A DNA stretch of 56,339 nucleotides from positions 40,714-97,052 of the forward strand of contig UCJH01000068.1 in NCBI GenBank assembly GCA_900472785.1, given 5' to 3'. Positions 17,920 to 31,399 of this stretch are shown here, piece by piece. Source of the stretch: Hyphomicrobiales bacterium. GTDB taxonomy: Bacteria > Pseudomonadota > Alphaproteobacteria > Rhizobiales > Rhizobiaceae. Every line of letters begins with the position of its first letter. Positions within the stretch are counted from its first letter, which is position 1. Position numbers and translations under genes: made by a program. The notes under the pieces are model-generated. The model was not told the DNA's origin. It saw only the letters and a program-made list of their open reading frames with translations, and did no database searches.

Positions 17920-19380
17920 ATGACCATCACCCTGAAAGACCCTTCGCTTTTCCGTCAGGCCGCTCTTGTCGGGGGTGAGTGGATCGAGGCCGATCCGAAG
18001 ACCGGCATTGCCGTCAACAACCCGGCAACGGGCGAGATCATCGGCCATGTGCCGAAGCTGGGTGGTGCGGAAACCAGAACGGCCATTGAGGCGGCCCGGG
18101 TCGCGCAGAAGGGCTGGGCTGCCCGCACCGCCAAGGAACGTTGCGGCATCCTGCGCAAATGGTTCGACCTGATGATCGAAAACAAGGAGGATCTTGGCCG
18201 CATCCTGACACTGGAACAGGGCAAGCCGCTGGCCGAAGCCACGGGCGAGATCGTCTATGGCGCAAGCTTCATCGACTGGTTTGCCGAGGAAGGCCGCCGG
18301 ATCTATGGCGATCTCATCCCCGGCCACCAGCCCGACAAGCGCCTGATGGTCATGAAGCAGCCGATCGGCGTCGTCGCCGCGATCACGCCCTGGAACTTCC
18401 CGAACGCGATGATCACCCGCAAGGCTGGCCCGGCCTTTGCCGCGGGCTGCGCCATGGTCCTGAAGCCCGCCTCGCAGACGCCGTTCTCGGCGATCGCGAT
18501 CGCGCTTCTGGCCGAACGCGCCGGGCTTCCGAAGGGTCTGTTCAGCGTCATCACAGGTTCTGCCGTGGCGATCGGTGCCGAGATGACGTCGAACCCGACC
18601 GTGCGCAAGCTGACCTTCACCGGATCGACCGAAATCGGCATGGAACTCTACAAGCAGAGCGCCCCGACGATCAAGAAACTGGGCCTGGAACTCGGTGGCA
18701 ACGCACCGTTCATCGTCTTCGACGACGCCGATCTCGATGCTGCCGTCGAGGGTGCGCTGATCGCCAAGTTCCGCAACAACGGCCAGACCTGCGTCTGCGC
18801 CAACCGGATCTATGTGCAGGAGGGCGTCTATGACGCCTTTTCCGAGAAGCTGGCTGCCGCTGTCGGCAAGCTGAAGACGGGCAACGGCATGGACGAGGGT
18901 GTCATTCTCGGCCCGCTGATCGACAAGGCAGCGCTGGAAAAGGTGCAGGAACACATTGCCGATGCGCTCGGCAAGGGTGCCAAGGTGCTGCAGGGCGGCA
19001 AGGCGCATGCGCTCGGCGGCACCTTCTTCGAGGCGACGATCCTCGGCGACGTCACCAAGGACATGGCCGTGGCCCGCGAGGAAACCTTCGGGCCGCTCGC
19101 GCCGCTGTTCAAGTTCAGGAACGAGGCCGACGTCGTCGAACAGGCCAATGACACGGAATTCGGTCTCGCATCCTATTTCTACGCCCGCGACCTGTCGCGC
19201 GTCTTCCGCGTCGCCGAGGCGCTGGAATATGGCATGGTCGGCGTCAATACAGGCCTCATCTCGACGGCGGAAGCGCCGTTCGGCGGCGTCAAGCTTTCCG
19301 GTCTTGGCCGCGAAGGCTCGAAATACGGCATCGAGGAATTCGTCGAGGTCAAATATGTCTGCCTCGGCGGTATCGCCTGA
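17920..19380 (+). CDS. gabD: Aldehyde dehydrogenase, succinate-semialdehyde dehydrogenase (GabD) type
   Basis: NAD(P)+-dependent oxidation of an aldehyde to an acid; best match by eye is GabD, the last step of GABA breakdown. 486 residues. Catalytic Glu257 in GLELGGNAPFIVF and Cys291 in NNGQTCVCANR; cofactor block GVVAAITPWNFPNAM and FTGSTEIG. The C-terminus GREGSKYGIEEFVEVKYVCLG is typical of GabD. It has its own terminator. A motif shared with the neighbouring sugar locus lies upstream, so it may oxidise the aldehyde released by the HpaI-type aldolase next door instead of, or besides, succinate semialdehyde. Confidence 0.88.
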   Translation: MTITLKDPSLFRQAALVGGEWIEADPKTGIAVNNPATGEIIGHVPKLGGAETRTAIEAARVAQKGWAARTAKERCGILRKWFDLMIENKEDLGRILTLEQGKPLAEATGEIVYGASFIDWFAEEGRRIYGDLIPGHQPDKRLMVMKQPIGVVAAITPWNFPNAMITRKAGPAFAAGCAMVLKPASQTPFSAIAIALLAERAGLPKGLFSVITGSAVAIGAEMTSNPTVRKLTFTGSTEIGMELYKQSAPTIKKLGLELGGNAPFIVFDDADLDAAVEGALIAKFRNNGQTCVCANRIYVQEGVYDAFSEKLAAAVGKLKTGNGMDEGVILGPLIDKAALEKVQEHIADALGKGAKVLQGGKAHALGGTFFEATILGDVTKDMAVAREETFGPLAPLFKFRNEADVVEQANDTEFGLASYFYARDLSRVFRVAEALEYGMVGVNTGLISTAEAPFGGVKLSGLGREGSKYGIEEFVEVKYVCLGGIA

Positions 19381-19401
19381 GATAGACTGCGCTTCCTTGG
19401 A

Positions 19402-19433
19402 AAGCCGGCCGGATTGTTCTGGCCGGCTTTTTT
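19402..19433 (+). terminator. Rho-independent terminator after gabD
   Basis: Nine-bp stem AAGCCGGCC / GGCCGGCTT with a 10-nt loop and a T6 tail, 21 bp after the stop codon. Confidence 0.9.
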
Positions 19434-19474
19434 GATTCCGGCTAAGGATTGTCATCGCTACAAGGGAGACAAGC

Positions 19475-20275
19475 ATGCCTGCACCGAAAAACCTGTTCAA
19501 GGCAGCCTTGCGCGAGGATCGTTTCCAGCTTGGGCTCTGGGTGGCGCTGGCAAGCCCCTATGCGGCCGAAATCCTCAGTGGCAGCGGATATGACTGGCTT
19601 TTGATCGACGGGGAACATGGACCGAACGACATTCCGCTGCTTGCGGCGCAGATCCAGGCGCTGGCTGGCTCCGGCAGCCATCCGATCGTGCGCCTGCCGA
19701 TCGGCGAGACCTGGCTGATCAAGCAGATTCTCGATGCCGGCGCCCAGACGCTTCTGATTCCGATGGTAGAATCGGTGGAGCAGGCGCAAGCGCTGGTGCG
19801 CGCCGTGCGCTATCCGCCGCATGGCATCCGCGGCGTCGGTGCAGCGCTCGGACGAGCCTCGCAATTCAGCCGGATCGGCGACTACCTCGAGACGGCCAAT
19901 GACGAAATCTGCCTGCTTCTGCAGATCGAAAGCCGTGCCGGGCTTGCGGTGATCGATGCCGTGGCGGAGCTGGATGGGGTCGATGGCGTCTTCATCGGAC
20001 CGTCCGACCTGGCTGCCGATATGGGCCTCCTCGGAAAACCGGGCTCTCCTGAAGTGCTCGCAGCGATCACCGATGCATTCGAGCGCATCAAGCGGGCCGG
20101 CAAGGCACGGGGCATCATGACGCTCGATCTCGATCAGGCGCGGCGCTATCGCGACCTCGGAGCGACTTTCATGGCCATCGGCACCGACGTCACGCTGCTG
20201 GTCAGCGCGACGACGCAGTTGCGCGAGGCGTTTTTATACGGTGAAGGCAAGGCGACGTCCGTATCCGGCTACTGA
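19475..20275 (+). CDS. HpcH/HpaI-family 2-keto-3-deoxy acid aldolase
   Basis: Class II (metal-dependent) aldolase that releases pyruvate from 2-keto-3-deoxy or 4-hydroxy-2-keto acids. 266 residues. His48 in IDGEHGPND is the catalytic base, Arg71-type block PIVRLPIGE, metal-ligand Glu in LLQIESRAGL and Asp in IGPSDLAADMGLLG. Relatives include HpaI, GarL and YfaU/RhmA; which one fits best cannot be read by eye. In this locus it could cleave 2-keto-3-deoxygluconate or deoxyfuconate. Its TGA abuts the stop codon of the convergent uxaB-like gene (TGATCA). Confidence 0.88.
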   Translation: MPAPKNLFKAALREDRFQLGLWVALASPYAAEILSGSGYDWLLIDGEHGPNDIPLLAAQIQALAGSGSHPIVRLPIGETWLIKQILDAGAQTLLIPMVESVEQAQALVRAVRYPPHGIRGVGAALGRASQFSRIGDYLETANDEICLLLQIESRAGLAVIDAVAELDGVDGVFIGPSDLAADMGLLGKPGSPEVLAAITDAFERIKRAGKARGIMTLDLDQARRYRDLGATFMAIGTDVTLLVSATTQLREAFLYGEGKATSVSGY

Positions 20276-21367
20276 TCAAGCCGGTTTGGCGATCGCCGCC
20301 AGCTTCGGCATTGCGACATCCGGGCTCCATTGCGTGAGATCAACGATACGGCGGACAAGTTTCTCGGCGTGATGATTGGCGATATCGCGGATGCGATGGT
20401 CGAGAAACGGATTGTCGAAACGGTCCAGGGTCGCCGCGACATAGGCTTTTGCCTCAGGGCCAAGACCGTTTGCCGCAAAAGCAGGGATGACTTCGGTTTC
20501 GTAGATATCGAGGAGCGTCGAGCGGATCTGCGCAACGGACAGGATTTCCCGCACGGTCTCCGCGTCCGGCCGCTGCTGCTTCAGCCAGATATCGGCCAGC
20601 ACGGTATGCCCGAGGTTGAGGATATGCAGCTTCAGCTTTTCATAGGGCATCAGGTCGGCGACCGGCAGAATGCTGGGATGCGTGCAGGGCAGCACCAGAC
20701 CCGGCTGCTGCTCGATCGCCCAGAGCGCATAGGGCTCCGCCACGGCGCCTGCCGGTTCGATCGGTTCCGAAACGATGCGATCGACCAGCGTATTTGCCCA
20801 AATCACCTTGGTGTCGAGCCAGGCCGCGAAGGCGATATTTCCGATCCGCTCGTTCTGCATCGACAGGATCAAGGCCTTTAAAACGCTGCCGTTGCGGGAA
20901 ATCAGTTCGCAGGGCAGCATGCTCAGCGGCCGGCCTCCCGCCAGGAAACGCGCATGGAGCAGCGCAAGCAGCTTGCCGGGAAAGGACGCGGGAACGGCTT
21001 CACCCGCGCTGTCGGCGTCGATCCGGTAGCCGGTGTCGCCCGTGTTGGAGATGAGAATCTCTGCCTCTTCGACCACGATGCGCATCACTTCGGCCCAGTC
21101 TGTGGCCGTCGATAAAGCCCGCGCCACGCTCGTTACCTGCTGGGTGCGGTTGATCTCGATCCCGGCTTCGAGCCCGCGAACGATCACCGGGAACCCCTCG
21201 GGTGCGGCCAGTGCCGCAAGCCGCCCTGCGCGCTCGGCCGCTCCCGTCGTCTGGACGATCGTGATTTTGCCCAAGGCCTCGCCGCGCTCCAGCGCCTCGC
21301 TGATGAAAAGGTCGGCATGGGCCTGGAGGAAACGGCTGGTTCCGAATTGCACGATCGCGGTCTTCAT
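20276..21367 (-). CDS. Mannitol dehydrogenase-family oxidoreductase, tagaturonate reductase (UxaB)-like
   Basis: NAD-dependent long-chain polyol/hexuronate reductase. 363 residues, starting MKTAIVQFGTSRFLQAHAD with the Rossmann fold of the family; ILISNTGDTGYRID follows, and the catalytic Lys-Asn-His set is in KLKLHILNLGHTVLAD. E. coli UxaB is about 480 residues, so this is a shorter member. Proposed reaction: D-tagaturonate + NADH to D-altronate, feeding the UxaA-like enzyme encoded divergently. Fructuronate or another ketose-acid is possible. Probably co-transcribed behind the GntR gene (15-bp gap). Confidence 0.78.
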   Translation of the reverse strand: MKTAIVQFGTSRFLQAHADLFISEALERGEALGKITIVQTTGAAERAGRLAALAAPEGFPVIVRGLEAGIEINRTQQVTSVARALSTATDWAEVMRIVVEEAEILISNTGDTGYRIDADSAGEAVPASFPGKLLALLHARFLAGGRPLSMLPCELISRNGSVLKALILSMQNERIGNIAFAAWLDTKVIWANTLVDRIVSEPIEPAGAVAEPYALWAIEQQPGLVLPCTHPSILPVADLMPYEKLKLHILNLGHTVLADIWLKQQRPDAETVREILSVAQIRSTLLDIYETEVIPAFAANGLGPEAKAYVAATLDRFDNPFLDHRIRDIANHHAEKLVRRIVDLTQWSPDVAMPKLAAIAKPA

Positions 21368-21382
21368 CGTTCTGGTCGGCCT

Positions 21383-22261
21383 TTACTGGATGGATTGGAG
21401 CAGGGTTTCACGCGCCGAGCGCAGATGCCTGCGGCAGGCTTCCTCGGCTTTCACGGGATCGCGGGCGCGCAGCGCGGCGATATAGGCAAGATGTTCTTCC
21501 AGTGCGCGGCCGTTGCGTTCGCGGGCATTCGCCTTGTTCCACTGGTAATGATAGTGGAAGACGATGGCGATGATGTCGTAGAAATCGACGATAAAGCGGT
21601 TGCTCGACGATTTGTGCAGCAGGCGGTGGAAGCGTTCGTCCAGCTCCGAAAATTCCTTGTAGCGATTGTCGATGTCGCCAAGGATGTCATGGTGCAGCGC
21701 CTCGATCCGCGACAGTTCGGCCCAGGCCGGATGCTCTTCCGGCAGGGCGACGAAGGAATGCGCCGAGCGTAGCTCGAACATTTCGCGCACTTCGGTCAGC
21801 TCCAGCGCGAATTCGCGGGTGAAGCCCTTCAGGATCCAGTGGCTGTTCGGGCGTTTCTCGATCAGCCCGAAGCGGCTGAAGCGGATCAGGAATTCGCGCA
21901 CGCTGGTCGTGCCGGTGCCTATGTCGCGCGCCAGTTCCAGTTCGTTGATCTGCATGCCCGGTTCTGCACCACCGGCCAGAATCCGGCGCATGAAACTGCG
22001 CTCGATGATATCCGACAGCGAATCGGTTTCTTCCACGGGGTAATAGTCGGCTGGTTCCGGCTGGCGCAGCACCGCTTTCGCGCGTTTGTCCCAGGTGATC
22101 AGCTTCAGCTCTTCAAGACGCGTCAGGATGGCCCGGATCGTCGTGCGGCTGACGCCGAGCACGGCGCCGAGCTCCGGCTCGGACGGCAGGGCAGCGGTTT
22201 CGGCCAGGAGCTTGAGGCAACGGTTGAAGGCTTCCTTGAAGACGGTGTTTTGCTTCGCCAT
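21383..22261 (-). CDS. GntR/FCD regulator with two winged-helix domains
   Basis: 292 residues, longer than the usual 220-240 of FCD-type GntR proteins. Residues 8-66 form one winged helix (LPSEPELGAVLGVSRTTIRA, then ILTRLEELKLITW). Residues 84-146 form a second complete one (PGMQINELELARDIGTGTTS, then VREFLIRFSRFGLIEKR). The FCD ligand-binding domain fills about 150-290 (ELTEVREMFELRSA, HHDILGDID, FHRLLHKSSSNRFI, HLAYIAALRARDPVKAEEACRRHL). Such domains bind metal and sugar acids. Divergent from uxaA, hence the likely local repressor. Confidence 0.87.
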   Translation of the reverse strand: MAKQNTVFKEAFNRCLKLLAETAALPSEPELGAVLGVSRTTIRAILTRLEELKLITWDKRAKAVLRQPEPADYYPVEETDSLSDIIERSFMRRILAGGAEPGMQINELELARDIGTGTTSVREFLIRFSRFGLIEKRPNSHWILKGFTREFALELTEVREMFELRSAHSFVALPEEHPAWAELSRIEALHHDILGDIDNRYKEFSELDERFHRLLHKSSSNRFIVDFYDIIAIVFHYHYQWNKANARERNGRALEEHLAYIAALRARDPVKAEEACRRHLRSARETLLQSIQ

Positions 22262-22564
22262 GATTTCGCCGGTTGGAGAGAGAACCTGTTCGATCCGCGC
22301 ATGCGGTCGTGCCCATCGATACGGCGTTTAAAGCCGTGCCATGCGCTCCTCTATCCCGTCCGCCGGTTCCTGTCTCCGTCGCCGGCCTGATCTCGCATGA
22401 TTGTTTCGTCCCATGTTTTGTTTTGAAGGCGTCGGTGCCGTTTTGCATCGACGCTGTGATGGCTGGCATAATAACCATTGACGGAAAACTGTCTATTGTA
22501 GATAAAAGACAAAAATCGGAGAGCGTGGTCGTTTTCCGGAAAATCGACATGGGAGATACTCAGG
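22262..22564. promoter_or_regulatory. Divergent gntR / uxaA control region
   Basis: 303 bp with no gene. The 60 bp before uxaA are AT-rich. TGTCTATTGTAG at 22490-22501 recurs upstream of gabD and in related form upstream of the importer. It is part of an imperfect 22-bp inverted repeat (TGTCT at 22490-22494, AGACA at 22507-22511). Promoters for both directions must lie here. Confidence 0.6.
22490..22501 (+). promoter_or_regulatory. Candidate operator 2 (uxaA promoter)
   Basis: TGTCTATTGTAG followed by ATAAAAGACA; the outer TGTCT/AGACA arms give it dyad symmetry as expected for a GntR dimer site. 64 bp before the uxaA start codon. Confidence 0.45.
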
Positions 22565-24070
22565 GTGGCTGCACCGTCGTTCATCGTTTTGTCGCCGGAA
22601 GACAATGTCGCCGTCGCATCGCTGGCCATCGAGGCGGGTGGAGACCTCCCGGAAGGTGTCCGCGCCAATAGCAAGATCGATCCGGGCCACAAGGTGGCGA
22701 TCCGGCCGGTTCATGTCGGCGAACCGGTGGTGAAATACGGACAGGCCATCGGCCGGGCAACCGTCGAGATCGCCGCCGGCGACCATGTGCATTCCCACAA
22801 TCTCGCCTTCGATCAGGACCGTCTGTCGATCGGCGCGCCGGTGCCGCCGGAAGCGGCCAGCGAGGCCGACAAGGCCCGTACCTTCATGGGCTATCGCCGG
22901 TCTGACGGCCGCGCGGCAACCCGCAATTTCATCGGCATCATCGCCAGCGTCAACTGTTCCACCACCGTCTGCCGCGCCATTGCCGAGGAGGCCAACAAGA
23001 CCATCCTGCCGCTTTACGACGGCATCGACGGTTTCGTGCCGATCGTGCACGATCAGGGCTGCGGCATGAGCTCGACGGGCGACGGCATGCAGAACCTGCA
23101 CCGCACGCTGGCCGGCTATACCCGGCATGTGAATTTCGGCGGCGTGCTGATGGTTGGCCTCGGCTGCGAGGTCAACCAGCTGACGCTCTACGGCCAGAGC
23201 GGGGCGGGTGCCGGCAAGCGGCATTTCAACATTCAGGATGCCGGCGGTTCGCGCCGCGCGGTCGCCCGCGCCCTTGGCGTGCTGGGCGAGATCGCCGCCG
23301 AAGTCGGTACGGCAAAGCGTGTGGCCATCCCGGTCAGCGAAATCATCGTCGGCCTGCAATGCGGCGGGTCGGACGGGCTTTCGGGCATCACCGCCAATCC
23401 GGCTTTGGGTGCTGCCGTCGATATTCTCGCCGGTGCCGGCGGGACCGCGATCCTCTCGGAAACCTCGGAAATCTATGGGGCAGAACATCTCCTGCGCAGC
23501 CGTGCGGTCAACGAGGATGTGGCCAGGAAGCTCGATGGGCTGATTTCCTGGTGGGAAAATTACGTCGCCATGCACGGTGCTTCGCTGGACAACAATCCCT
23601 CTCCGGGAAACAAGCGCGGCGGCCTGACGACCATTCTGGAAAAATCGCTCGGTGCCGTGGCCAAGGGTGGCCGTTCGCCGCTGACGGCCGTCTACAATTA
23701 TGCCGAACGGGTCAAGGAACACGGGCTCGTGTTCATGGATACGCCCGGCTACGATCCGGTCTCCGCCACGGGCCAGGTGGCTGGCGGCGCCAATGTCATC
23801 ACCTTCACCACCGGTCGCGGCAGCTGCTTCGGCTCGCGCCCATGCCCGTCGATCAAGCTCACCAGCAACACGGCCCTCTACCAGTCGATGGAAGAGGACA
23901 TGGATATCGATTGCGGCACGATTGCCACCGGCGACGCGACGATTGCCGGCAAGGCGCGTGAAATCTTCGACCTGATCGTCGACACGGCATCGGGCAAGAA
24001 GACCAAGAGCGAACTGTTCGGCTATGGCGACAATGAATTCGTGCCGTGGCACCTCGGCGCAACACTCTGA
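22565..24070 (+). CDS. uxaA: Altronate dehydratase (UxaA)-family enzyme
   Basis: Iron-dependent dehydratase of the UxaA/GarD family that removes water from an aldonate to give 2-keto-3-deoxygluconate. 501 residues, GTG start with GGGAG nine bases before. An N-terminal SAF domain (about 1-85, EIAAGDHVHSHNL) is followed by the large catalytic part: SVNCSTTVCRAIAEEAN, DQGCGMSSTGDGMQNL, VGLGCEVNQ, GLQCGGSDGLSGITANPALG and GRGSCFGSRPCPSIKLTSN. The many Cys/His suit a metal centre. D-altronate is the expected substrate from the neighbours; L-fuconate or galactarate remain possible. First gene of a long plus-strand operon. Confidence 0.85.
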   Translation: MAAPSFIVLSPEDNVAVASLAIEAGGDLPEGVRANSKIDPGHKVAIRPVHVGEPVVKYGQAIGRATVEIAAGDHVHSHNLAFDQDRLSIGAPVPPEAASEADKARTFMGYRRSDGRAATRNFIGIIASVNCSTTVCRAIAEEANKTILPLYDGIDGFVPIVHDQGCGMSSTGDGMQNLHRTLAGYTRHVNFGGVLMVGLGCEVNQLTLYGQSGAGAGKRHFNIQDAGGSRRAVARALGVLGEIAAEVGTAKRVAIPVSEIIVGLQCGGSDGLSGITANPALGAAVDILAGAGGTAILSETSEIYGAEHLLRSRAVNEDVARKLDGLISWWENYVAMHGASLDNNPSPGNKRGGLTTILEKSLGAVAKGGRSPLTAVYNYAERVKEHGLVFMDTPGYDPVSATGQVAGGANVITFTTGRGSCFGSRPCPSIKLTSNTALYQSMEEDMDIDCGTIATGDATIAGKAREIFDLIVDTASGKKTKSELFGYGDNEFVPWHLGATL

Positions 24071-24099
24071 CGGACACAAGGTCAGGGGAGGAGAGACTT

Positions 24100-25122
24100 T
24101 TGCTGCAGACGAGAAAAATCGGCCGGACGGATTTGTCGGTCACCGAATTCAGTTTCGGCACCGCGCCGCTTGGCGGCATGTATCGCGCTTGCCCGCGCGA
24201 CATGGCCATGGAAACGCTGGACGCGGCCTGGGAATCCGGCATCCGGTTCATCGATACAGCGCCCTGGTACGGTTTCGGACTGGCCGAACGGCGTGTCGGT
24301 GATTTCCTGCGCGACAAGCCCAAGGGAAGCTGGGTTCTATCGACCAAGGTCGGTCGGCTGCAGCGGCCGGTGGCCGACGAAAAGGTGCCGAGCTACGGCT
24401 TCGTCGATCCGCTGCCCTTCGATACGGACTACGACTATTCCTATGACGGCATCATGCGCTCGGTCGAGTTCAGCCATGCCCGCCTCGGTCTCAACCGCAT
24501 CGATATTCTCTTTGTCCACGACATCGGCGTCTATACCCATGGCGCCGAGCGCAATGCCGTCTATCTGCGCCAGCTTTTCGATGGCGGGCTGAAGGCGCTG
24601 GAAGAGTTGAAATCGGGCGGGGCGATTGCCGCCTATGGCCTCGGCGTCAACGAAGTGCCCGTGTGTCTCGACGTGATGCGCGAGGCGGATCTCGACTGCC
24701 TTCTCCTTGCCGGCCGCTACACGCTTCTGGATCGGACGGCGACGGCCGAGCTTTTGCCGCTTTGCGAAAAAAAGCAGACCTCGCTGGTGGTCGGCGGCGT
24801 CTTCAACTCGGGCATTCTGGCGACAGGCCCGGTCGAGGGATCGCATTTCGACTACATGCCGGCGACGCCGGACGTGCTGGAAAAGGTTGCGGCGATGGAA
24901 AAGATCGCCGGGGCGCAGGGCTTTCCGCTTGCCCAGCCGGCGATCCAGTTTCCGTTGCAAAATCCGATGGTGGCCTCGGTGCTGCTTGGCACCGCAAAAC
25001 CATCGAGCCTCCTGCGCAACATGGAATTGACCGACCGGCGCCTGATGCCGGACGATTTCACCGCTTACGAAGCCCACACGCTGGTTGCCCCGGAACTTGG
25101 AACGGAAGCCATCCGGGTCTAG
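24100..25122 (+). CDS. Aldo/keto reductase, L-galactose/L-fucose (D-threo-aldose) 1-dehydrogenase type
   Basis: NAD(P)-dependent oxidation of an aldose at C1 to the lactone. The TTG at 24100 is chosen because GGGGAGGAG ends about 8 bases before it; this gives 340 residues (LLQTRKIGRTDLSVTEFSFG). Starting at GTG 24046 would overlap uxaA and has no such site. AKR tetrad: Asp52 and Tyr57 in DTAPWYGFGLAERRVG, Lys in VLSTKVGR, His in LFVHDIGVY. The relatives include L-fucose dehydrogenase, plant/bacterial L-galactose dehydrogenase and pyridoxal 4-dehydrogenase. 29 bp after uxaA. Confidence 0.85.
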   Translation: MLQTRKIGRTDLSVTEFSFGTAPLGGMYRACPRDMAMETLDAAWESGIRFIDTAPWYGFGLAERRVGDFLRDKPKGSWVLSTKVGRLQRPVADEKVPSYGFVDPLPFDTDYDYSYDGIMRSVEFSHARLGLNRIDILFVHDIGVYTHGAERNAVYLRQLFDGGLKALEELKSGGAIAAYGLGVNEVPVCLDVMREADLDCLLLAGRYTLLDRTATAELLPLCEKKQTSLVVGGVFNSGILATGPVEGSHFDYMPATPDVLEKVAAMEKIAGAQGFPLAQPAIQFPLQNPMVASVLLGTAKPSSLLRNMELTDRRLMPDDFTAYEAHTLVAPELGTEAIRV

Positions 25123-25145
25123 CCGGGTCAAGAAGAGAAGACAGC

Positions 25146-25592
25146 ATGCTGAAAGGAATACATCCCTTGCTCGGGCCGGATCTGCTGCATGCGATCCGCA
25201 CCATGGGCCATGGGGACGAGATCGTCATTGCCGATGCGAATTTTCCATCGAGCACCCTGGGGCCGACAGTCGTGCGCGCCGACGGGGTCGATGCGTTGTC
25301 CATTACGGAAGCGGTTCTGGCGCATATGCCGCTCGATACGTTCGTCGGAGAGTCCGCGTGGCGCATGGAGGTCGTCGGCGATCCGACGGCGGTGCCGGAT
25401 GTCTGCGTCAAGTTCCAGAGTCTGGTGAAGAAGCTGGCCGGTGACTTCAAGGTCGTGCCGATCGAGCGGTTTGCCTTTTACGAGCGGGCGCGCAAGGCCG
25501 CCTATATCGTCGCGACGACGGAGTTCCGGCTGTATGGAAACATCATCCTGAAGAAAGGCGTCGTGCATCCGCAGGACCTGTACCGCGTCTGA
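25146..25592 (+). CDS. fucU: FucU/RbsD-family sugar mutarotase (L-fucose mutarotase type)
   Basis: 148 residues from ATG 25146; FucU of E. coli is 140. It interconverts alpha and beta anomers of the imported sugar. MLKGIHPLLGPDLLHAIRTM, GHGDEIVIADANFPS and LGPTVVRADG at the start and RFAFYERARKAAYIV and YGNIILKKGVVHP at the end are the FucU rather than RbsD pattern. FucU accepts L-fucose, and L-galactose has the same ring configuration, which points to an L-galacto sugar as the locus substrate. 23 bp after the aldo/keto reductase gene. Confidence 0.9.
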   Translation: MLKGIHPLLGPDLLHAIRTMGHGDEIVIADANFPSSTLGPTVVRADGVDALSITEAVLAHMPLDTFVGESAWRMEVVGDPTAVPDVCVKFQSLVKKLAGDFKVVPIERFAFYERARKAAYIVATTEFRLYGNIILKKGVVHPQDLYRV

Positions 25593-25627
25593 AGGGATGC
25601 GGCCGCCGGCGAAGTCTGGAGAATTTA

Positions 25628-25639
25628 CTATAGAAAACA
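25628..25639 (-). promoter_or_regulatory. Candidate operator 3 (importer promoter region)
   Basis: Minus-strand TGTTTTCTATAG, 11 of 12 identical to the plus-strand site at 25731. Located between fucU and the binding-protein gene. Confidence 0.35.
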
Positions 25640-25730
25640 AACTCTTGGAATTTGAATAAAAACGGACGCTCAAGGAGGAAGAGGGCCGCTTGCAATTTCG
25701 AAAATGCTGAGATAGCTTGCCAGAGCAAAA

Positions 25731-25742
25731 TGTTTTTTATAG
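25731..25742 (+). promoter_or_regulatory. Candidate operator 4 (importer promoter region)
   Basis: TGTTTTTTATAG followed by ATAAA; with these extra bases it matches the uxaA site at 14 of 17 positions. 77 bp upstream of the binding-protein start, in a 226-bp non-coding stretch that suggests a second promoter inside the locus. Confidence 0.4.
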
Positions 25743-25818
25743 ATAAAGATCGACTGTTGGCGTCTTGCGGTCCGGTCTGGGAGAACTCAACAAGACGTTG
25801 TTGGAGGAGAACAACACC

Positions 25819-26808
25819 ATGACACTGATGAAGAATATTCTGTCCCGTCGCGCGTTCACCAGCTTGGCTGGTGCTGCGGTTTTCGCAACCATGATGCCGA
25901 TGACGTCGTTCGCGCAGGACGTGACCATCCCGATCATCGTCAAGGACACCACGTCCTTCTACTGGCAGATCGTTCTGGCTGGCGCCCGCGCTGCCGGCAA
26001 GGATCTCGGCGTCAACGTGCCGGAACTCGGCGCCCAGTCCGAATCCGACATCAACGGCCAGATCAGCATTCTTGAAAACGCCGTTGCCGGCGCGCCGGCT
26101 GCCGTCGTCATCTCGCCGACGGAATTCAAGGCGCTCGGCAAGCCGATCGACGAGGCCGCCAAGGCCGTTCCGATCATCGGCATCGACTCCGGTGCGGATT
26201 CGAAGGCGTTCACCTCCTTCCTGACCACAGACAACGTCCAGGGCGGCCGTATCGCTGCTGACGGTCTGGCTGCCGCCATCAAGGAAGCAACCGGCAAGGA
26301 AGAAGGCGAAATCGCCATCATCACCAGCCTGCCGGGTGTCGGTTCGCTCGATCAGCGTCATGAAGGTTTCGTCGAAGTCATCGGCGCGAAATATCCGGGC
26401 CTGAAGATCGTTGCCGACAAATATGCAGACGGCCAGGCGACAACCGGCCTCAACATGATGACCGACCTGATCACCGCAAACCCGAACCTGGTCGGCGTGT
26501 TCGCATCCAACCTGATCATGGCGCAGGGCGTTGGCCAGGCGATCGCCGAAAACAAGCTCGGCGACAAGATCAAGGTCATCGGCTTCGACTCGGACGAAAA
26601 GACGGTCGGCTTCCTCAAGGAAGGCGTTCTCGCCGGCCTCGTCGTGCAGGATCCCTATCGCATGGGCTATGACGGCATCAAGACCGCGCTCGCCGCTTCC
26701 AAGAAGGAAAAGGTCGAGGCCAATGTCGACACCGGCGCGAACCTGGTGACCAAGGCCAACATGGCCGACCCCAAGATCGACGCCCTTCTGAACCCGAAGG
26801 TCAACTGA
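25819..26808 (+). CDS. CUT2 sugar ABC transporter, periplasmic binding protein (RbsB-like)
   Basis: 329 residues from ATG 25819, with GGAGGAGA eight bases upstream. The N-terminus MKNILSRRAFTSLAGAAVFA has an SRRAFT twin-arginine motif, a hydrophobic stretch and a TSFAQD cleavage region, so Tat export is likely. The mature part has the periplasmic-binding-protein fold (DTTSFYWQIVLAGARAAGKD, GADSKAFTSFLTTDNVQGG, VGVFASNLIMAQGVGQAI, IKVIGFDSDEKTVGFLKEG, VVQDPYRMGYDGI). It binds a monosaccharide, here proposed to be L-galactose or L-fucose. Heads the sbp-rbsA-rbsC part of the operon. Confidence 0.9.
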   Translation: MTLMKNILSRRAFTSLAGAAVFATMMPMTSFAQDVTIPIIVKDTTSFYWQIVLAGARAAGKDLGVNVPELGAQSESDINGQISILENAVAGAPAAVVISPTEFKALGKPIDEAAKAVPIIGIDSGADSKAFTSFLTTDNVQGGRIAADGLAAAIKEATGKEEGEIAIITSLPGVGSLDQRHEGFVEVIGAKYPGLKIVADKYADGQATTGLNMMTDLITANPNLVGVFASNLIMAQGVGQAIAENKLGDKIKVIGFDSDEKTVGFLKEGVLAGLVVQDPYRMGYDGIKTALAASKKEKVEANVDTGANLVTKANMADPKIDALLNPKVN

Positions 26809-26817
26809 TCCAGCGAT

Positions 26818-26849
26818 CGGCAGGGCGCGGTTCATACCTCGCCCTGCCG
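26818..26849 (+). other. Intercistronic hairpin after the binding-protein gene
   Basis: Perfect 10-bp stem CGGCAGGGCG / CGCCCTGCCG with a 12-nt loop and no T-run. Such hairpins commonly protect the binding-protein message 3' end and lower expression of the membrane parts downstream. Confidence 0.6.
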
Positions 26850-26930
26850 GTGTCGATCCGGACGAATCATCCTGCCTCACAGGGCTTGTGCCGCGTGAGG
26901 CGGGTTTTCGAATATGGGGAGGGAGCCGCC

Positions 26931-28466
26931 ATGACAGGACTTCACGATATCACCCAGCTGCATGCCGAGGGGCATCCTGTCGCCAAGGGACAGCCGATCC
27001 TCGAACTGCGCGGGCTGCAAAAGAAATACGGTGCCGTCGAAGCTTTGAAGCCGGCGAACATCACCTTCCTGTCCGGCGAAATCCACGCCATCGTCGGTGA
27101 AAACGGCGCCGGCAAATCCACCCTCATCAAGCTTTTGACCGGCGTCATCCGCCGCACCTCCGGCGAGGTGTTTTGGTGCGGCCAGCCGGTGCAGCTCGCC
27201 ACCCCGACGGAAGCGATTGCCCGCGGCATCAATGCCGTGCACCAGGAGGTCGTGCTCTGCCGCCACCTGACGGTCGCGGCCAACATGTTTCTCGGCGACG
27301 AGATGCAGTCCAGGGGCCTGATGCGCAAAAGGGCCATGACCGAAGCCGCGCAGGCGGTTCTGAACGATCTCGGTTTCAACCTGCCGGCGGCCGCAATGCT
27401 CAGCGATCTGACGATCGGCCAGCAGCAGCTCGTCGCCACGGCGCGCGCGGCGATGCGCGGCACCCAGTTTCTGATTTTCGACGAGCCGACCGCCTATCTG
27501 ACGCGCCAGGAATCGGCGCAGCTCTTCCGGCTCATTCGCAGGCTTCAGGATGAAGGCGTAACGATCGTCTATATCAGTCACCGCATGGAAGAGGTTTTCG
27601 AGCTGGCCGACCGCGTTTCGGTCCTGCGCGACGGCACCCATGTCGGTACCCGCCTGATCGGTGAGACCAACGATGCCGAACTGATCTCGATGATGATCAA
27701 TCGCACCATCGAGCAGATTTATCACAAGGAACACCTGCCGATCGGCGAGACGATCGTCGAAACGCGCGGACTGTCCGGTCCCGGTTTCGAAAACGTGTCG
27801 CTGTCGGTGAAGGCCGGAGAGATCGTCGGGCTTTACGGCCTGATCGGTGCCGGGCGCAGCGAGTTCGCGCTCGGGCTCTACGGCCGCCAGCCGTTGAGCG
27901 CCGGCGAAGTCTTCTGGCAAGGCAACAGGGTAACGATCGACAACGAGCGCAAGGCGATGGATCTCGGCATTGCGCTGGCGCCCGAAAGCCGCCGCGACCA
28001 GGGGCTCTGCCTCAACCTGCCGATCGGCCTCAACATCAACCTTCCGGTGTTCGACCGCCTGAGCAATGGCCTGACCATCAACCGGCGCCGTGAAATCGAG
28101 AATGCCGACAGGCAGATCAGCGACCTGAAGATCAAGACGCCGTCGCGTCGGGTACTGGCGTCCGCCATGTCCGGCGGCAACCAGCAGAAGATCGTCATCG
28201 GCAAATGGCTGAGCCATGGCGCCAAGCTGTTCATTTTCGACGAACCGACTGTTGGCGTCGATGTCGGTACCAAGGCGGAAATCTACCGGCTGTTCGCGCG
28301 GCTCCTGGAAGGGGGCGCCGGCATCATCCTGATCTCGTCCTACCTGCCGGAAGTCTACGAGCTTTCCGACAGGCTGCATGTGTTCCGGCAGGGAAAGCTG
28401 GTGGCCAGCCACACCTATCGCAGCGCCTCGCACGAGGAAGTGCTGACGCAGGCGATCGGCGTGTGA
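26931..28466 (+). CDS. CUT2 sugar ABC transporter, ATP-binding protein (RbsA-like)
   Basis: 511 residues from ATG 26931, GGGGAGGGAG just before; an open frame from 26850 is not needed. Two fused ABC domains. The first has Walker A VGENGAGKSTLIK, signature LTIGQQQLVATARA and Walker B FLIFDEPTAYL. The second has a degenerate Walker A (GLIGAGRSEFALGL), signature MSGGNQQKIVIGKWL and Walker B LFIFDEPTVGVDVG, the normal asymmetry of RbsA/MglA. Powers import of the sugar captured by the upstream binding protein. Confidence 0.94.
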   Translation: MTGLHDITQLHAEGHPVAKGQPILELRGLQKKYGAVEALKPANITFLSGEIHAIVGENGAGKSTLIKLLTGVIRRTSGEVFWCGQPVQLATPTEAIARGINAVHQEVVLCRHLTVAANMFLGDEMQSRGLMRKRAMTEAAQAVLNDLGFNLPAAAMLSDLTIGQQQLVATARAAMRGTQFLIFDEPTAYLTRQESAQLFRLIRRLQDEGVTIVYISHRMEEVFELADRVSVLRDGTHVGTRLIGETNDAELISMMINRTIEQIYHKEHLPIGETIVETRGLSGPGFENVSLSVKAGEIVGLYGLIGAGRSEFALGLYGRQPLSAGEVFWQGNRVTIDNERKAMDLGIALAPESRRDQGLCLNLPIGLNINLPVFDRLSNGLTINRRREIENADRQISDLKIKTPSRRVLASAMSGGNQQKIVIGKWLSHGAKLFIFDEPTVGVDVGTKAEIYRLFARLLEGGAGIILISSYLPEVYELSDRLHVFRQGKLVASHTYRSASHEEVLTQAIGV

Positions 28467-28506
28467 TCGAAAAAGACATGATAAGAAAATGTGAGGGAGA
28501 AAATTC

Positions 28507-29481
28507 ATGAGCGTAGAGACCACAACGGAATCCGCACCGGTGCCGAAAAAGGGCATGAACATCCTGTTCGGCCTGATCCTGCTCGGTCTCCTGCTGCTCC
28601 TCTGGCTGCTGTTGGGCATCTTCACCAATAGCTTCTGGACGCCAAACAACATCAGCAACCTTTTGCGCCAGGGCGCGATGACGGCGATCCTTGCGGTCGG
28701 CCAGACCTTCGTCATCATCACGGCCGGTATCGATCTGTCCGTCGGTGCCGTGGTCGGGTTTGCCAGCGTCACCGTTGCCTGGCTGCTTGCCGCCGGCGTG
28801 CCGCTCTGGCCGGCCATGGCGATCACGCTGCTGATCGGCGTCCTCATCGGCGCCTTCCATGCCTTCGGGATCGTCCGCATGGGCCTGCCGGCCTTTATCA
28901 TTACGCTGGCAACATTGACGTCGCTGCGCGGCATCGGCCTTCTGATCACCAACGGCTCGACGATTTCAATCAGCAATGACGCCTTTACCAATTTCTCCCG
29001 TGCCGATTTTCTCGGCGTGCCCAGCCTTTTCTGGATGGTGCTCGTGGTGGCGATCCCCGCTTATATCTTCCTGCATCTCAGCCGCTGGGGGCGCTATCTG
29101 TTTGCCGTCGGTTCCAACAGCGAGGCGGCGCGCCTGTCGGGCGTCAATGTCAACCGCACCATCTATCTCGCCTATATCCTGTCTTCGACCTGCGCCGCTT
29201 TCGTCGGCCTGCTTCTGGCCTCGCGCATCGGCATCGGCAACGCGACCCAGGCGGAAGGCTGGGAGCTGCAGGCGATCGCTTCTTCAGTCATCGGCGGAAC
29301 CAGCCTTTTCGGTGCGGTCGGGTCTGTGCATGGACCGCTGATCGGCGCGTTTATCCTGGCAACCATCAACAACGGCGCCAATCTTCTCAACGTCAATTCG
29401 TTCTGGCAGCGGATCATCACCGGCGCGCTGATCATCGTCATCGTCTATGTCGACCAGCTGCGCCGCCGCGGCGCGCGTTGA
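28507..29481 (+). CDS. CUT2 sugar ABC transporter, permease (RbsC-like)
   Basis: 324 residues, BPD_transp_2 family. About eight or more hydrophobic segments, the first at ILFGLILLGLLLLLWLLLGI. The family motif AVGQTFVIITAGIDLSVGAV is at about 60-80, and GSNSEAARLSGVNV is the coupling loop to the ATPase. GAVGSVHGPLIGAFILATINNG is a late conserved block. ATG preceded by GAGGGAG; 40 bp after the ATPase gene. Confidence 0.93.
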   Translation: MSVETTTESAPVPKKGMNILFGLILLGLLLLLWLLLGIFTNSFWTPNNISNLLRQGAMTAILAVGQTFVIITAGIDLSVGAVVGFASVTVAWLLAAGVPLWPAMAITLLIGVLIGAFHAFGIVRMGLPAFIITLATLTSLRGIGLLITNGSTISISNDAFTNFSRADFLGVPSLFWMVLVVAIPAYIFLHLSRWGRYLFAVGSNSEAARLSGVNVNRTIYLAYILSSTCAAFVGLLLASRIGIGNATQAEGWELQAIASSVIGGTSLFGAVGSVHGPLIGAFILATINNGANLLNVNSFWQRIITGALIIVIVYVDQLRRRGAR

Positions 29482-29549
29482 TCCACCCTTGCATGGCGCG
29501 GCCCCGGCCGCGGCATGTTGTCTCCAAAACATGAACTTCGGACGACGCC

Positions 29550-30569
29550 ATGAAAGCTGTTCTTTGCCCTGAACCCGGGCGCCTGGAGATCGTCGAGAGG
29601 ACGGCACTGCCGACACCGCCGGCAGGCTGGGCAAGGCTTGCCGTCAGCCATGTCGGTATTTGTGGCACCGACTATCATATTTTCGAGGGCAAGCATCCCT
29701 TCCTCGAATATCCGCGCATCATGGGCCACGAGATTTCGGCGACCGTGCTGGAAGCGGGCATCGGCGTCACGCTGCAGCCCGGAACGCCGGTCATCGTCAA
29801 TCCCTACCTGTCCTGCGGCACCTGCATCGCCTGCCGGCAGGGAAAGCCCAACTGCTGCACGGCGATCAAGGTGCTCGGCGTGCACACAGACGGCGCCTTC
29901 TGCGAAGAAATCCTCGTTCCGGAAGCCAATCTCTATCCGGCCGGCGAGCTGTCGCTCGAAGCGGCCGCGACGGTGGAATTCCTGGCGATCGGCGCGCATG
30001 CGGTGCGGCGCTCGCTGGCGCCGTCCGGCGTCCGGGCGCTGGTCATCGGCGCCGGGCCGATCGGCCTTGGCACCGCGATCTTCTCGCGGATTGCCGGTCA
30101 TGCCGTCACACTCCTCGATGCCAGTTCCGAACGCCTCGGCATGGCCGCCGCGCGGTTTGGATTTACCGGTGGCATTCAGGCGGGCGAGGGCACGCTGGAG
30201 GCGGTGCTGTCTGCCACCGATGGCGAGGGTTTCGATGTGGTTTTCGATGCCACGGGTCATGGTGGCTCGATGGAAAAATCCTTCGCCTTCGTCGCCCATG
30301 GCGGCTGCCTCGTATTCGTCAGCGTCGTGAAGGACGACATCCGGTTTTCCGATCCGGAATTCCACAAGCGGGAAATGATGCTGATCGGCAGCCGCAATGC
30401 GACAAGGGTGGATTTCGAGCACGTCGCGGCCTCGATCCGCTCCGGGCAGGTGCCGATCGATCAGCTGATCACCCATCGCACCACGCTTGAGCGCGTCATC
30501 GACGACCTGCCGCGCTGGGCACATGAAAAATCCGGGCTGATCAAGGCGGTGATCAAGGTTTCGGCATGA
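29550..30569 (+). CDS. Zinc alcohol dehydrogenase, L-galactonate 5-dehydrogenase (LgoD)-like
   Basis: Medium-chain NAD-dependent dehydrogenase, 339 residues. Catalytic zinc ligands Cys38 (GICGTDYH) and His60-Glu61 (MGHEI); structural zinc cysteines 89, 92, 95 and 102/103 in CGTCIACRQGKPNCC. Rossmann motif VIGAGPIGLG. The block RFSDPEFHKREMMLIGSRNA resembles E. coli LgoD (YjjN), which oxidises L-galactonate to D-tagaturonate. This matches the UxaB- and UxaA-like neighbours. A related substrate such as 2-keto-3-deoxyfuconate cannot be excluded. 68 bp after rbsC, overlaps the next gene by 4 bp. Confidence 0.83.
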   Translation: MKAVLCPEPGRLEIVERTALPTPPAGWARLAVSHVGICGTDYHIFEGKHPFLEYPRIMGHEISATVLEAGIGVTLQPGTPVIVNPYLSCGTCIACRQGKPNCCTAIKVLGVHTDGAFCEEILVPEANLYPAGELSLEAAATVEFLAIGAHAVRRSLAPSGVRALVIGAGPIGLGTAIFSRIAGHAVTLLDASSERLGMAAARFGFTGGIQAGEGTLEAVLSATDGEGFDVVFDATGHGGSMEKSFAFVAHGGCLVFVSVVKDDIRFSDPEFHKREMMLIGSRNATRVDFEHVAASIRSGQVPIDQLITHRTTLERVIDDLPRWAHEKSGLIKAVIKVSA

Positions 30570-31399
30570 AGCGGATCGACGCCCACCAGCACTACTGGAC
30601 GCTTGGCCTTGGCCACAACAACTGGCCGACGCCGGATCTCGCAGCGATCCACCGCGATTTTGCACCTTCGGATCTCGCGCCGCATCTGGCGGCCTGCGGT
30701 GTCGTCCGCACCGTGCTCGTCCAGGCGGCGCCGAACATCGCCGAGACGGAATTCCTCTTGGAATTGTCGCAGAAGGAAGACACGGTTGCCGCCGTCGTCG
30801 GCTGGGTCGATGTCTGCGCACCGACCGCAGTTGGGGAGCTTGAGCGGCTGGCGCGTTACCCGAAATTCAGGGGCATCCGCCCAATGCTGCAGGGCATCGA
30901 GGACACGGCCTATATCCTGCAGCCGGCAGCGCTGGAAACCTTGGACCGTGTTGCCGCAATAGGCCTGCGCTTCGACGCACTGATCCAACCCCGGCATCTG
31001 CCGGTGATCGCGGCGCTGGCGGATCGCCTGCCCGGTCTGCCGATCGTGGTCGATCACGGGGCAAAGCCGTTCATCGAAACAGGCGTTACGGAGCCGTGGC
31101 GGGCCGATATGGCCGCCCTGGCGCGGCGCTCGAATGTCTTCGTGAAACTGTCCGGCCTGGTGACCGAGGCGGGAGAGGACTGGTCGGTCGAACGGCTGAA
31201 ACCCTATGCTGCGCATCTGCTGGAGGTCTTCGGACCGGACCGCATCATGTTCGGCAGCGACTGGCCGGTCGTCGAACTCGCCGCGACCTACGAGCGCTGG
31301 ATGGAGGCTGCAGACGCCCTGACGGCGCATCTGGACGCGAAAGGCAAAGAGGCGGTGTTCCGGGCGACGGCGGCGGCGTTCTATGGCATTGCCGATTGA
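30566..31399 (+). CDS. COG3618 amidohydrolase, probable sugar lactonase
   Basis: 277 residues, Amidohydrolase_2 fold. MKRIDAHQHYW has the HxH metal motif (His7, His9). PIVVDHGAKPFI carries a metal/base His, VFVKLSGLVTEAG the strand-6 region and RIMFGSDWPVVELAA the catalytic Asp. COG3618 includes L-fucono-1,5-lactonase and other sugar lactonases, so opening of the L-galactono- or L-fuconolactone made by the aldo/keto reductase is the likely job. ATG overlaps the upstream stop (ATGA). Last gene of the operon; about 220 bp to phaZ. Confidence 0.86.
   Translation: MKRIDAHQHYWTLGLGHNNWPTPDLAAIHRDFAPSDLAPHLAACGVVRTVLVQAAPNIAETEFLLELSQKEDTVAAVVGWVDVCAPTAVGELERLARYPKFRGIRPMLQGIEDTAYILQPAALETLDRVAAIGLRFDALIQPRHLPVIAALADRLPGLPIVVDHGAKPFIETGVTEPWRADMAALARRSNVFVKLSGLVTEAGEDWSVERLKPYAAHLLEVFGPDRIMFGSDWPVVELAATYERWMEAADALTAHLDAKGKEAVFRATAAAFYGIAD

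What the first reader, a model, noticed from the sequence alone, without database searches (positions are those of the whole stretch)
17920..31399. Candidate complete L-galactose (or L-fucose) catabolic locus with CUT2 importer
The enzymes line up as a route: FucU-type mutarotase; aldo/keto reductase making the 1,5-lactone; COG3618 lactonase giving L-galactonate; LgoD-like zinc dehydrogenase giving D-tagaturonate; UxaB-like reductase giving D-altronate; UxaA-like dehydratase giving 2-keto-3-deoxygluconate; HpaI-type aldolase and aldehyde dehydrogenase for the end. Each family is recognisable in the sequence, and each step is known chemistry elsewhere. The combination with an RbsABC-like importer and a GntR regulator in a rhizobial-type genome seems poorly described. 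The LgoD-like and UxaB-like members favour L-galactose; an L-fucose route would leave those two unexplained.
Basis: partly seen in the sequence, partly recalled or inferred. Interest (0 to 1): 0.85.

Follow-up and report, generated by a model that had tools for sequence, protein, structure and literature searches.

The report
Shared L-fucose and L-galactose catabolic locus
A soil bacterium related to Rhizobium appears to use one importer and one set of first-step enzymes to eat two rare plant sugars, L-fucose and L-galactose, whose acids then follow separate routes; the chemistry is known, but this combined rhizobial version still needs bench tests.

Summary
The genes are real and correctly recognised: GntR, short UxaB, UxaA, aldo/keto reductase, FucU, CUT2 importer, zinc dehydrogenase, COG3618 lactonase. 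Three corrections follow.

(1) The aldehyde dehydrogenase and HpaI aldolase are probably resident neighbours. They lie beside the cassette in 26 of 26 loci between gyrB and phaZ and in 0 of 29 loci elsewhere, occur without it, and have no regulator site.

(2) The choice 'L-galactose or L-fucose' is probably false. The binding protein is 90% identical to the S. meliloti ortholog, taken to be SMc02774, which binds L-fucose at 3.6 nM. A conserved GntR operator lies before uxaA/gntR and before the importer, and in the same genome before an L-KDF-dehydrogenase-like gene and a FAH-type hydrolase gene.

(3) The L-galactose arm is credible: the zinc dehydrogenase groups with E. coli LgoD, and short UxaB lies near such a dehydrogenase in 23 of 33 loci. 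But 19 of 48 importer genomes with that dehydrogenase lack any short UxaB.

Combined fucose/galactonate loci are published for Halomonas; this is a rhizobial variant.

The parts
20276..21367 (-). short UxaB-lineage reductase (363 aa), proposed D-tagaturonate reductase
   Evidence: Pfam Mannitol_dh and Mannitol_dh_C; NCBIfam tagaturonate reductase 197 bits, below its 359 cut-off, versus 65 for fructuronate reductase; tree
21383..22261 (-). GntR-family regulator of the FCD type
22490..22511 (.). operator 1 (22-bp imperfect palindrome) between gntR and uxaA
   Evidence: best match at least 16 of 22 letters in 57 of 57 gntR upstream regions, window included; 34.4 bits
22565..24070 (+). UxaA/GarD-family dehydratase (start codon uncertain)
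   Evidence: four Cys shared with E. coli UxaA
24046..25122 (+). aldo/keto reductase, proposed L-galactose/L-fucose 1-dehydrogenase (start codon uncertain)
   Evidence: the five best of 13 PDB matches are named L-galactose dehydrogenase
25146..25592 (+). FucU-type mutarotase (148 aa)
   Evidence: NCBIfam L-fucose mutarotase 121 bits, cut-off 141
25731..25752 (.). operator 2, upstream of the importer genes
   Evidence: 22.2 bits
25810..26808 (+). CUT2 periplasmic binding protein, ortholog of the S. meliloti protein taken to be SMc02774
   Evidence: 90% identity; closest PDB sequence and fold 4rxt
26850..28466 (+). CUT2 ATPase
   Evidence: 84% identical to the S. meliloti ATPase; not scanned against Pfam
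28507..29481 (+). CUT2 permease
   Evidence: 90% identical to the S. meliloti permease
29550..30569 (+). LgoD-like zinc dehydrogenase
   Evidence: 39.5% to E. coli LgoD over 337 aa; tree
30566..31399 (+). COG3618 lactonase
   Evidence: NCBIfam L-fucono-1,5-lactonase 198 bits, cut-off 400; PDB 4dlf
17920..19380 (+). GabD-type aldehyde dehydrogenase, judged a resident neighbour rather than a cassette member
   Evidence: NCBIfam NADP-dependent succinate-semialdehyde dehydrogenase 852 bits, cut-off 828
19475..20275 (+). HpaI aldolase, judged a resident neighbour
   Evidence: NCBIfam HpaI 371 bits, cut-off 368.8

Best explanation
The cassette 20276-31399 is the core of one GntR-controlled regulon for two L-galacto-configured sugars, L-galactose and L-fucose (6-deoxy-L-galactose). 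Shared trunk: the CUT2 importer brings in the sugar, FucU interconverts its anomers, the aldo/keto reductase oxidises C1 to the 1,5-lactone and the COG3618 lactonase opens it. Then the acids part. L-Galactonate is oxidised at C5 by the LgoD-like enzyme to D-tagaturonate, reduced by the short UxaB to D-altronate and dehydrated by UxaA to 2-keto-3-deoxygluconate, which enters the general Entner-Doudoroff enzymes. L-Fuconate is dehydrated (most simply by the same UxaA) to L-2-keto-3-deoxyfuconate, which an unlinked FucF oxidises and an unlinked FucG-type hydrolase splits to pyruvate and L-lactate. Shown here: gene content, orthology of the binding protein, operator-like sites, linkage, relation to LgoD. 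Inferred: every substrate and reaction, and that GntR binds the sites.
For: Binding protein: 90% identical to the S. meliloti ortholog in the syntenic gyrB-phaZ locus; SMc02774 binds L-fucose at 3.6 nM and its gene is induced 4.2-fold by L-fucose (PMC3454389). AKR: the five best PDB matches are L-galactose dehydrogenases. Zinc dehydrogenase: 39.5% to LgoD against 31% to RspB, grouped with LgoD at 99/94 support. UxaB and zinc dehydrogenase: 23 of 33 short-UxaB loci have one at 48% or more within the ~20 kb fetched; all 29 importer genomes with a short UxaB have a zinc dehydrogenase, none of the 8 without the dehydrogenase has UxaB. Four genomes with a bare gntR-akr-importer locus carry uxaA-zndh-uxaB-gntR elsewhere, with operator-like sites of 15.9 to 26.1 bits beside that second gntR. 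A GH95-type gene adjoins zndh-uxaB in L060 and L063 and lies a few kb off in L062, not in L061 (GH95 includes an alpha-L-galactosidase, PMC4491172). Operator: own genome 28.2 bits, 65 bp before the FucG-type gene, and 19.7 bits, about 100 bp before a fucF homolog; 6 of 20 further unlinked fucF upstream regions have it at 16.0-21.6 bits; 20 Mb of simulated sequence gave 11 sites at 15 bits or more and none at 19. FucF identity rests on a homolog whose best PDB matches are the published L-KDF dehydrogenase structures. fucF-type genes: 55 of 56 importer genomes against 119 of 241 others.
Against: 19 of the 48 importer genomes with the zinc dehydrogenase have no short UxaB, and 6 of the 29 with one have only a member of a clade not linked to a zinc dehydrogenase, so the dehydrogenase often works without the proposed partner. 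The S. meliloti locus has UxaA and zinc dehydrogenase but no UxaB, FucU or lactonase gene. Full-length reductases near uxaC in four importer genomes (three of them with the dehydrogenase and no short UxaB) score as fructuronate, not tagaturonate, reductases. Eight of 55 loci have zinc dehydrogenase without UxaA or UxaB, and seven of these eight carry a fucF, so the dehydrogenase also accompanies L-fucose genes. 14 of 20 unlinked fucF upstream regions lack the operator, as do those in five of six fucF-bearing loci (L176, L182, L185, L186, L187; only L181 has it). The FAH hydrolase family is in all 56 importer genomes and is not specific to L-fucose; in this genome it stands beside a phosphonate operon. 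NCBIfam cut-offs are not reached by UxaB, UxaA, AKR, FucU, zinc dehydrogenase or lactonase. I saw no measurement of L-galactose binding.
Confidence: 0.6

Rival explanations
1. L-galactose only: all cassette enzymes, with or without ALDH and HpaI, serve L-galactose via D-tagaturonate, D-altronate and KDG; the fucF and FucG-type sites are incidental.
For: LgoD-type dehydrogenase, UxaB lineage and UxaA in one locus; AKR nearest in the PDB to L-galactose dehydrogenases.
Against: SMc02774 binds L-fucose at 3.6 nM; the operator stands before fucF in this genome, in G069 and in 6 of 20 others; fucF lies in or beside the importer operon in 9 of 55 loci.
Confidence: 0.2
2. L-fucose only: UxaA is an L-fuconate dehydratase, FucF and FucG finish, and the zinc dehydrogenase and UxaB have some other side role.
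For: L-fucose binding and induction in S. meliloti; S. meliloti-type loci lack UxaB; UxaA-family members act on L-fuconate (PMC6336799); zinc dehydrogenase with fucF but no UxaA or UxaB in seven loci.
Against: Leaves unexplained the LgoD relationship and the zndh-uxaB linkage, including loci with GH95-type genes and genomes where zndh, uxaB and uxaA sit together apart from the importer.
Confidence: 0.13
3. D-arabinose uptake and oxidation, since D-arabinose shares C2-C4 with L-galactose and L-fucose.
For: The closest solved relative, 4rxt (Arad_9553), is recalled to hold D-arabinose (ligand not seen in any call); an AKR of Paraburkholderia mimosarum oxidises D-arabinose and L-fucose alike (PMC6336799; not compared with this AKR).
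Against: A C5 dehydrogenase and UxaB make no sense for a pentonate (reasoning, not a test); the locus holds no enzyme specific to D-arabinose that I recognised.
Confidence: 0.04

Closest known systems
Halomonas L-fucose/L-fuconate/L-galactonate locus (PMC5507952; passages read)
   Same: lgoD, uxaA and uxaB or uxaF placed together with L-fucose/L-fuconate genes; likely co-regulation proposed
   Different: There a TRAP transporter is proposed for the acids; here a CUT2 system takes up the sugar, with AKR, FucU and a GntR operator, and the fuc genes are unlinked
Luteolibacter lgu dual L-glucose/L-galactose pathway (PMC12632266; abstract, part 1 of the results and the discussion read)
   Same: AKR, L-galactonate dehydrogenase, tagaturonate reductase and altronate dehydratase leading to KDG
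   Different: No importer, lactonase or FucU is listed in lguABCDEF; LguA is inactive on L-fucose; sequences were not compared here
E. coli L-galactonate route LgoD-UxaB-UxaA
   Same: Same three chemical steps; zinc dehydrogenase groups with LgoD
   Different: E. coli has the LgoT symporter for the acid; its UxaB is about 480 aa and 28% identical, its UxaA 34%
Non-phosphorylating bacterial L-fucose pathway (FucM, FucA, FucB, FucC, FucF, FucG; PMC11199699, passages read)
   Same: Mutarotase, 1-dehydrogenase and lactonase in the locus; a FucF-like and a FucG-type gene with the same operator
   Different: 1-dehydrogenase is an AKR; the candidate dehydratase is UxaA-type; FucF and FucG are unlinked
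S. meliloti SMc02772-SMc02775 region (PMC3454389, PMC12542648; passages read)
   Same: Syntenic ortholog between gyrB and phaZ with the same importer, AKR, UxaA and zinc dehydrogenase
   Different: No UxaB, FucU or lactonase gene in place

Membership tests
L-galactonate route of the E. coli type (LgoD, UxaB, UxaA) | C5 dehydrogenase related to LgoD | tested here: met
   39.5% identity over 337 aa; LgoD groups with it at 99/94, EcRspB outside with weak support. Relationship only; activity not tested
L-galactonate route of the E. coli type (LgoD, UxaB, UxaA) | tagaturonate reductase of the UxaB lineage | tested here: inconclusive
   Tagaturonate model 197 bits versus 65 for fructuronate, but below the 359 cut-off; groups with EcUxaB away from two UxuB-type proteins, few outgroups
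L-galactonate route of the E. coli type (LgoD, UxaB, UxaA) | altronate dehydratase activity of the UxaA-like protein | not testable with these tools
   Family and four Cys match; substrate needs an assay
Non-phosphorylating L-fucose pathway | L-fucose importer | tested here: met
   By orthology only: 90% identity to the S. meliloti protein; affinity from PMC3454389
Non-phosphorylating L-fucose pathway | L-KDF 4-dehydrogenase under the same operator | tested here: met
   fucF homolog at G000 C34 (63% to L086 fucF) with a site about 100 bp upstream; activity not tested
Non-phosphorylating L-fucose pathway | dedicated L-fuconate dehydratase | not tested
   Only UxaA is in the locus; an enolase-type L-fuconate dehydratase elsewhere in the genome was not searched for
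CUT2 sugar ABC importer | binding protein, ATPase and permease of the ribose type | tested here: met
   for binding protein and permease; the ATPase by identity to S. meliloti
GntR/FCD regulon | conserved palindromic site beside gntR | tested here: met
   57 of 57 upstream regions; binding itself not tested

The most novel reading that the evidence does not exclude
The zinc dehydrogenase and short UxaB act together as a C5 redox epimerase on L-fuconate as well as L-galactonate, so that L-fucose too can pass through 6-deoxy-D-altronate and, after dehydration and aldol cleavage, yield pyruvate and D-lactaldehyde: a route for L-fucose that I have not met.
Probability: 0.06. Interest if true: 0.65.

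Novelty: new variant of a known kind. Interest (0 to 1): 0.36.

Why it matters
L-fucose and L-galactose are minor sugars of plant cell walls (recalled background). One rhizobial importer for L-fucose has been measured, yet I found no bench assignment of the enzymes beside it in this family. The locus gives a testable assignment for ten genes, a 22-bp operator candidate that can be used to find the rest of the regulon, and a short UxaB subfamily that the plasmid records I saw call mannitol dehydrogenase family protein, D-mannonate oxidoreductase or hypothetical protein where they annotate it (30 of 52 records listed). It also shows how two sugars could share transport and first steps and part only at the acid.

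Tried and rejected
ALDH and HpaI as pathway ends: rejected, see the counts. Mutual exclusion of short UxaB and UxaC among the 56 importer genomes (4 both, 25 UxaB only, 24 UxaC only, 3 neither) looked as if a hexuronate-pathway UxaB stands in; four of four tested full-length reductases near uxaC score best as fructuronate reductase, so I do not use that argument. The FAH hydrolase as an L-fucose marker by presence: rejected, it is in 56 of 56 importer genomes. Ligand of 4rxt: the title was cut off before the ligand and the one paper listed for '4rxt' was off topic by title and not opened, so D-arabinose stays a recollection. Structure of the binding protein from a single sequence was useless (best pLDDT 32); with 36 close relatives the best model had pLDDT 76.7, the other four 35-57. 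The Watanabe paper on altronate dehydratase promiscuity was seen only as a citation, the Bacteroides vulgatus L-galactose work only as mentioned in PMC12632266. Fisher p-values ignore shared ancestry, take the 297 genomes as the same set (same request, same totals), and use lists typed from the outputs. The zndh tree contains one mislabelled row (S_L124, a YdjJ-like protein) and two far outliers (U_L045, U_L050_1107). The survey script stopped with an error at L123 after printing the earlier rows; L123 and L124 were read.
Full report
What is there. The window lies in a 5.38 Mb draft genome. Its nearest named relatives by the binding protein are Rhizobium sp. 32-5/1 (100%), Rhizobiales isolate AFS073149 and Rhizobium herbae DSM 26427 (both 99%) (records of the window's own genome may be left out there). 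Between a gyrB gene with a nitroreductase-like gene and a phaZ-like gene lie: aldehyde dehydrogenase, HpaI aldolase, short UxaB (reverse strand), GntR (reverse strand), UxaA, aldo/keto reductase, FucU, CUT2 binding protein, ATPase, permease, zinc dehydrogenase and COG3618 lactonase (names of the flanking genes from the S. meliloti annotation). Motifs expected for activity are present.

Orthologs. The binding protein is 90% identical to that of S. meliloti Ak57 in a locus with the same order and the same flanks, gyrB to phaZ. Identities there: ALDH 85, HpaI 78, GntR 82, UxaA 85, AKR 76, ATPase 84, permease 90, zinc dehydrogenase 72; UxaB, FucU and lactonase are absent. I take this protein to be SMc02774 because PMC3454389 places SMc02774 with the transporter genes SMc02772-4 and SMc02775, and PMC12542648 gives phaZ as SMc02770, with a site near chromosome position 24,214, and SMc02773 as the ATP-binding component; the sequence of SMc02774 itself was not compared. 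By this numbering the AKR would be SMc02775, annotated as putative L-fucose dehydrogenase. [quoted passage not shown] In the passages read there is no test of L-galactose.

Survey. In 297 genomes of the window's family, 56 have this binding protein at E <= 1e-120. I fetched 55 neighbourhoods (all but the window's own). Of these 55, 51 have gntR, 50 akr, 42 zinc dehydrogenase, 30 uxaA, 17 uxaB, 26 fucU and 7 lactonase at the thresholds used. All 17 with uxaB and all 30 with uxaA have the zinc dehydrogenase. Eight have the zinc dehydrogenase with neither; seven of these eight carry a fucF.

ALDH and HpaI. In 26 loci between gyrB and phaZ both are present 26 times; in 29 loci elsewhere neither is present. 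Of 20 hpaI loci fetched from outside importer loci, five lie between gyrB and phaZ, four without ALDH and one with it; three more have an ALDH homolog of 83-93% near hpaI at other places (L146, L150, L151). NCBIfam names the two window proteins succinate-semialdehyde dehydrogenase and 4-hydroxy-2-oxoheptanedioate aldolase above cut-off, which would fit each other as consecutive enzymes (recalled chemistry). No operator stands before them. I therefore leave them out. They may still help metabolically.

Regulator site. The gntR upstream regions of 56 relatives and the window share a 22-bp imperfect palindrome. A symmetrised matrix built without the window's row finds two sites in the window, at 22490 (34.4 bits) and 25731 (22.2 bits); the next is 9.5 and overlaps the first. 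In 20 Mb of simulated sequence with this genome's dinucleotide frequencies there were 48 sites of 13 bits or more, 11 of 15 or more, 1 of 17 or more and none of 19 or more. In the own-genome stretches fetched outside the window (L169, L170, L174, L269; 68 kb) a 28.2-bit site lies 65 bp before a FAH hydrolase gene (contig C144), a 15.9-bit site lies elsewhere in the same stretch, and a 19.7-bit site lies about 100 bp before a fucF homolog (contig C34). In G069 a 23.3-bit site precedes a fucF-fucG pair. Of 20 further importer genomes with an unlinked fucF, 6 have a site of 16.0 to 21.6 bits before it and 14 do not; four of the six are from one genus, g182, whose loci lack uxaB and FucU as in S. 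meliloti. These 20 were my choice among the 46 other importer genomes with no fucF in the importer locus. In the 15 unlinked FAH-hydrolase loci fetched, sites of 20 bits or more occur in two, L174 and L181; the others have none or only weaker matches. Six of those 15 also hold a fucF of 60% or more, and only L181 has a site before it.

FucF identity. The SDR found inside seven importer loci (L078, L086, L094, L096, L097, L100, L102; two more, L121 and L124, hold its L124-like form) matches best the entries 8XWK, 8Y11 and 8Y4J, then human 2AG5; PMC11199699 gives the first three as L-KDF dehydrogenase and 2AG5 as its homolog BDH2. The own-genome homolog is 63% identical to the L086 protein. At E <= 1e-88 fucF-type genes are in 55 of 56 importer genomes and 119 of 241 others.

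The L-galactose arm. The zinc dehydrogenase is nearest to LgoD among six E. coli relatives tested and groups with it at 99/94 (LgoD sits on a fairly long branch, and the tool warns of long branches near the root). Short UxaB at 47% or more occurs at 34 places in 33 of 397 genomes of the order; of the 33 neighbourhoods fetched (all but the window's), 23 have a zinc dehydrogenase at 48% or more. Among the 56 importer genomes 29 have a short UxaB and all 29 have a zinc dehydrogenase; 19 have the dehydrogenase only; 8 have neither. Six of the 29 hold only a UxaB from a clade that is not linked to the dehydrogenase, which leaves 23: 18 in the importer locus and 5 elsewhere beside a dehydrogenase. 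Four genomes (G480, G546, G600, G644) carry a bare gntR-akr-importer locus and a separate uxaA-zndh-uxaB-gntR locus with operator-like sites of 15.9 to 26.1 bits; in G396 an unlinked uxaB-zndh pair has a 31.4-bit site before uxaB. A GH95-type gene adjoins zndh-uxaB in L060 and L063 and lies a few kb off in L062; the otherwise similar L061 has none. Only the L060 protein was scanned and is GH95; the others were joined to it by sequence clustering. GH95 has members specific for L-galactose or for L-fucose (PMC4491172), and the residue once proposed to tell them apart is disputed (PMC8245568).

UxaA. A UxaA-family enzyme acted on D-arabinonate and, weakly, on D-altronate, L-fuconate and L-galactonate, which share C2 to C4; L-fuconate and L-galactonate dehydratases of this family were proposed from gene context (PMC6336799, passages read). 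So one UxaA could serve both arms. The genome has a KDPG aldolase above cut-off; KDG kinase was not searched.

What does not fit. The zinc dehydrogenase without any short UxaB in 19 of 48 genomes is the weak point. Full-length reductases near uxaC in four importer genomes, three of them of this kind, score as fructuronate reductases, so the missing reductase there is unknown. Either an UxuB-type enzyme also reduces tagaturonate, or the dehydrogenase has a second role, perhaps in the L-fucose arm.

What is known. A Halomonas locus with L-fucose/L-fuconate genes, lgoD, uxaA and uxaB or uxaF is described, with likely co-regulation suggested (PMC5507952). The L-galactose route through tagaturonate is shown for Luteolibacter, and that paper cites BVU_0219 and BVU_0222 of Bacteroides vulgatus. 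My paper searches for a rhizobial L-galactose route or this GntR regulon listed no such description by title or abstract start; most subscription journals are not in that library.

Verdict. A new rhizobial variant of known sugar-acid pathways: most likely one regulon for L-galactose and L-fucose, with the ALDH and HpaI genes as bystanders.

Noticed in passing
56 importer genomes; own genome UxaC at G000 C43: Short UxaB and UxaC nearly exclude each other: 4 genomes have both (the window's among them), 25 UxaB only, 24 UxaC only, 3 neither. Unexplained; ancestry not controlled.
   Followed up: partly
L060, L062, L063: GH95-type genes (alpha-L-fucosidase/alpha-L-galactosidase family) beside or near a zinc dehydrogenase-UxaB pair; a LacI-type regulator is also there in L060. 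Possible release of L-galactose or L-fucose.
   Followed up: partly
L174:3066-3087 (own genome, contig C144): A strong GntR operator-like site stands before a FAH hydrolase gene that is followed by phosphonate genes phnH, phnI and phnJ.
   Followed up: partly
L064 (CP090106.1): The S. meliloti Ak57 record is titled plasmid pSymB but is 3.7 Mb long and holds gyrB and secB, so it is probably the chromosome mislabelled.
   Followed up: no
G069 C14:102379-103392 and G136 C1:5989252-5990265: Second zinc-dehydrogenase copies, 60-61% identical, each with one in-frame TAG inside the match.
   Followed up: no
L033, L035-L038, L043: Short UxaB in a different setting without a zinc dehydrogenase; in L033 the neighbours are an HGSNAT-type protein and a sugar-nucleotide epimerase-like protein, the other loci were joined by clustering.
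   Followed up: no
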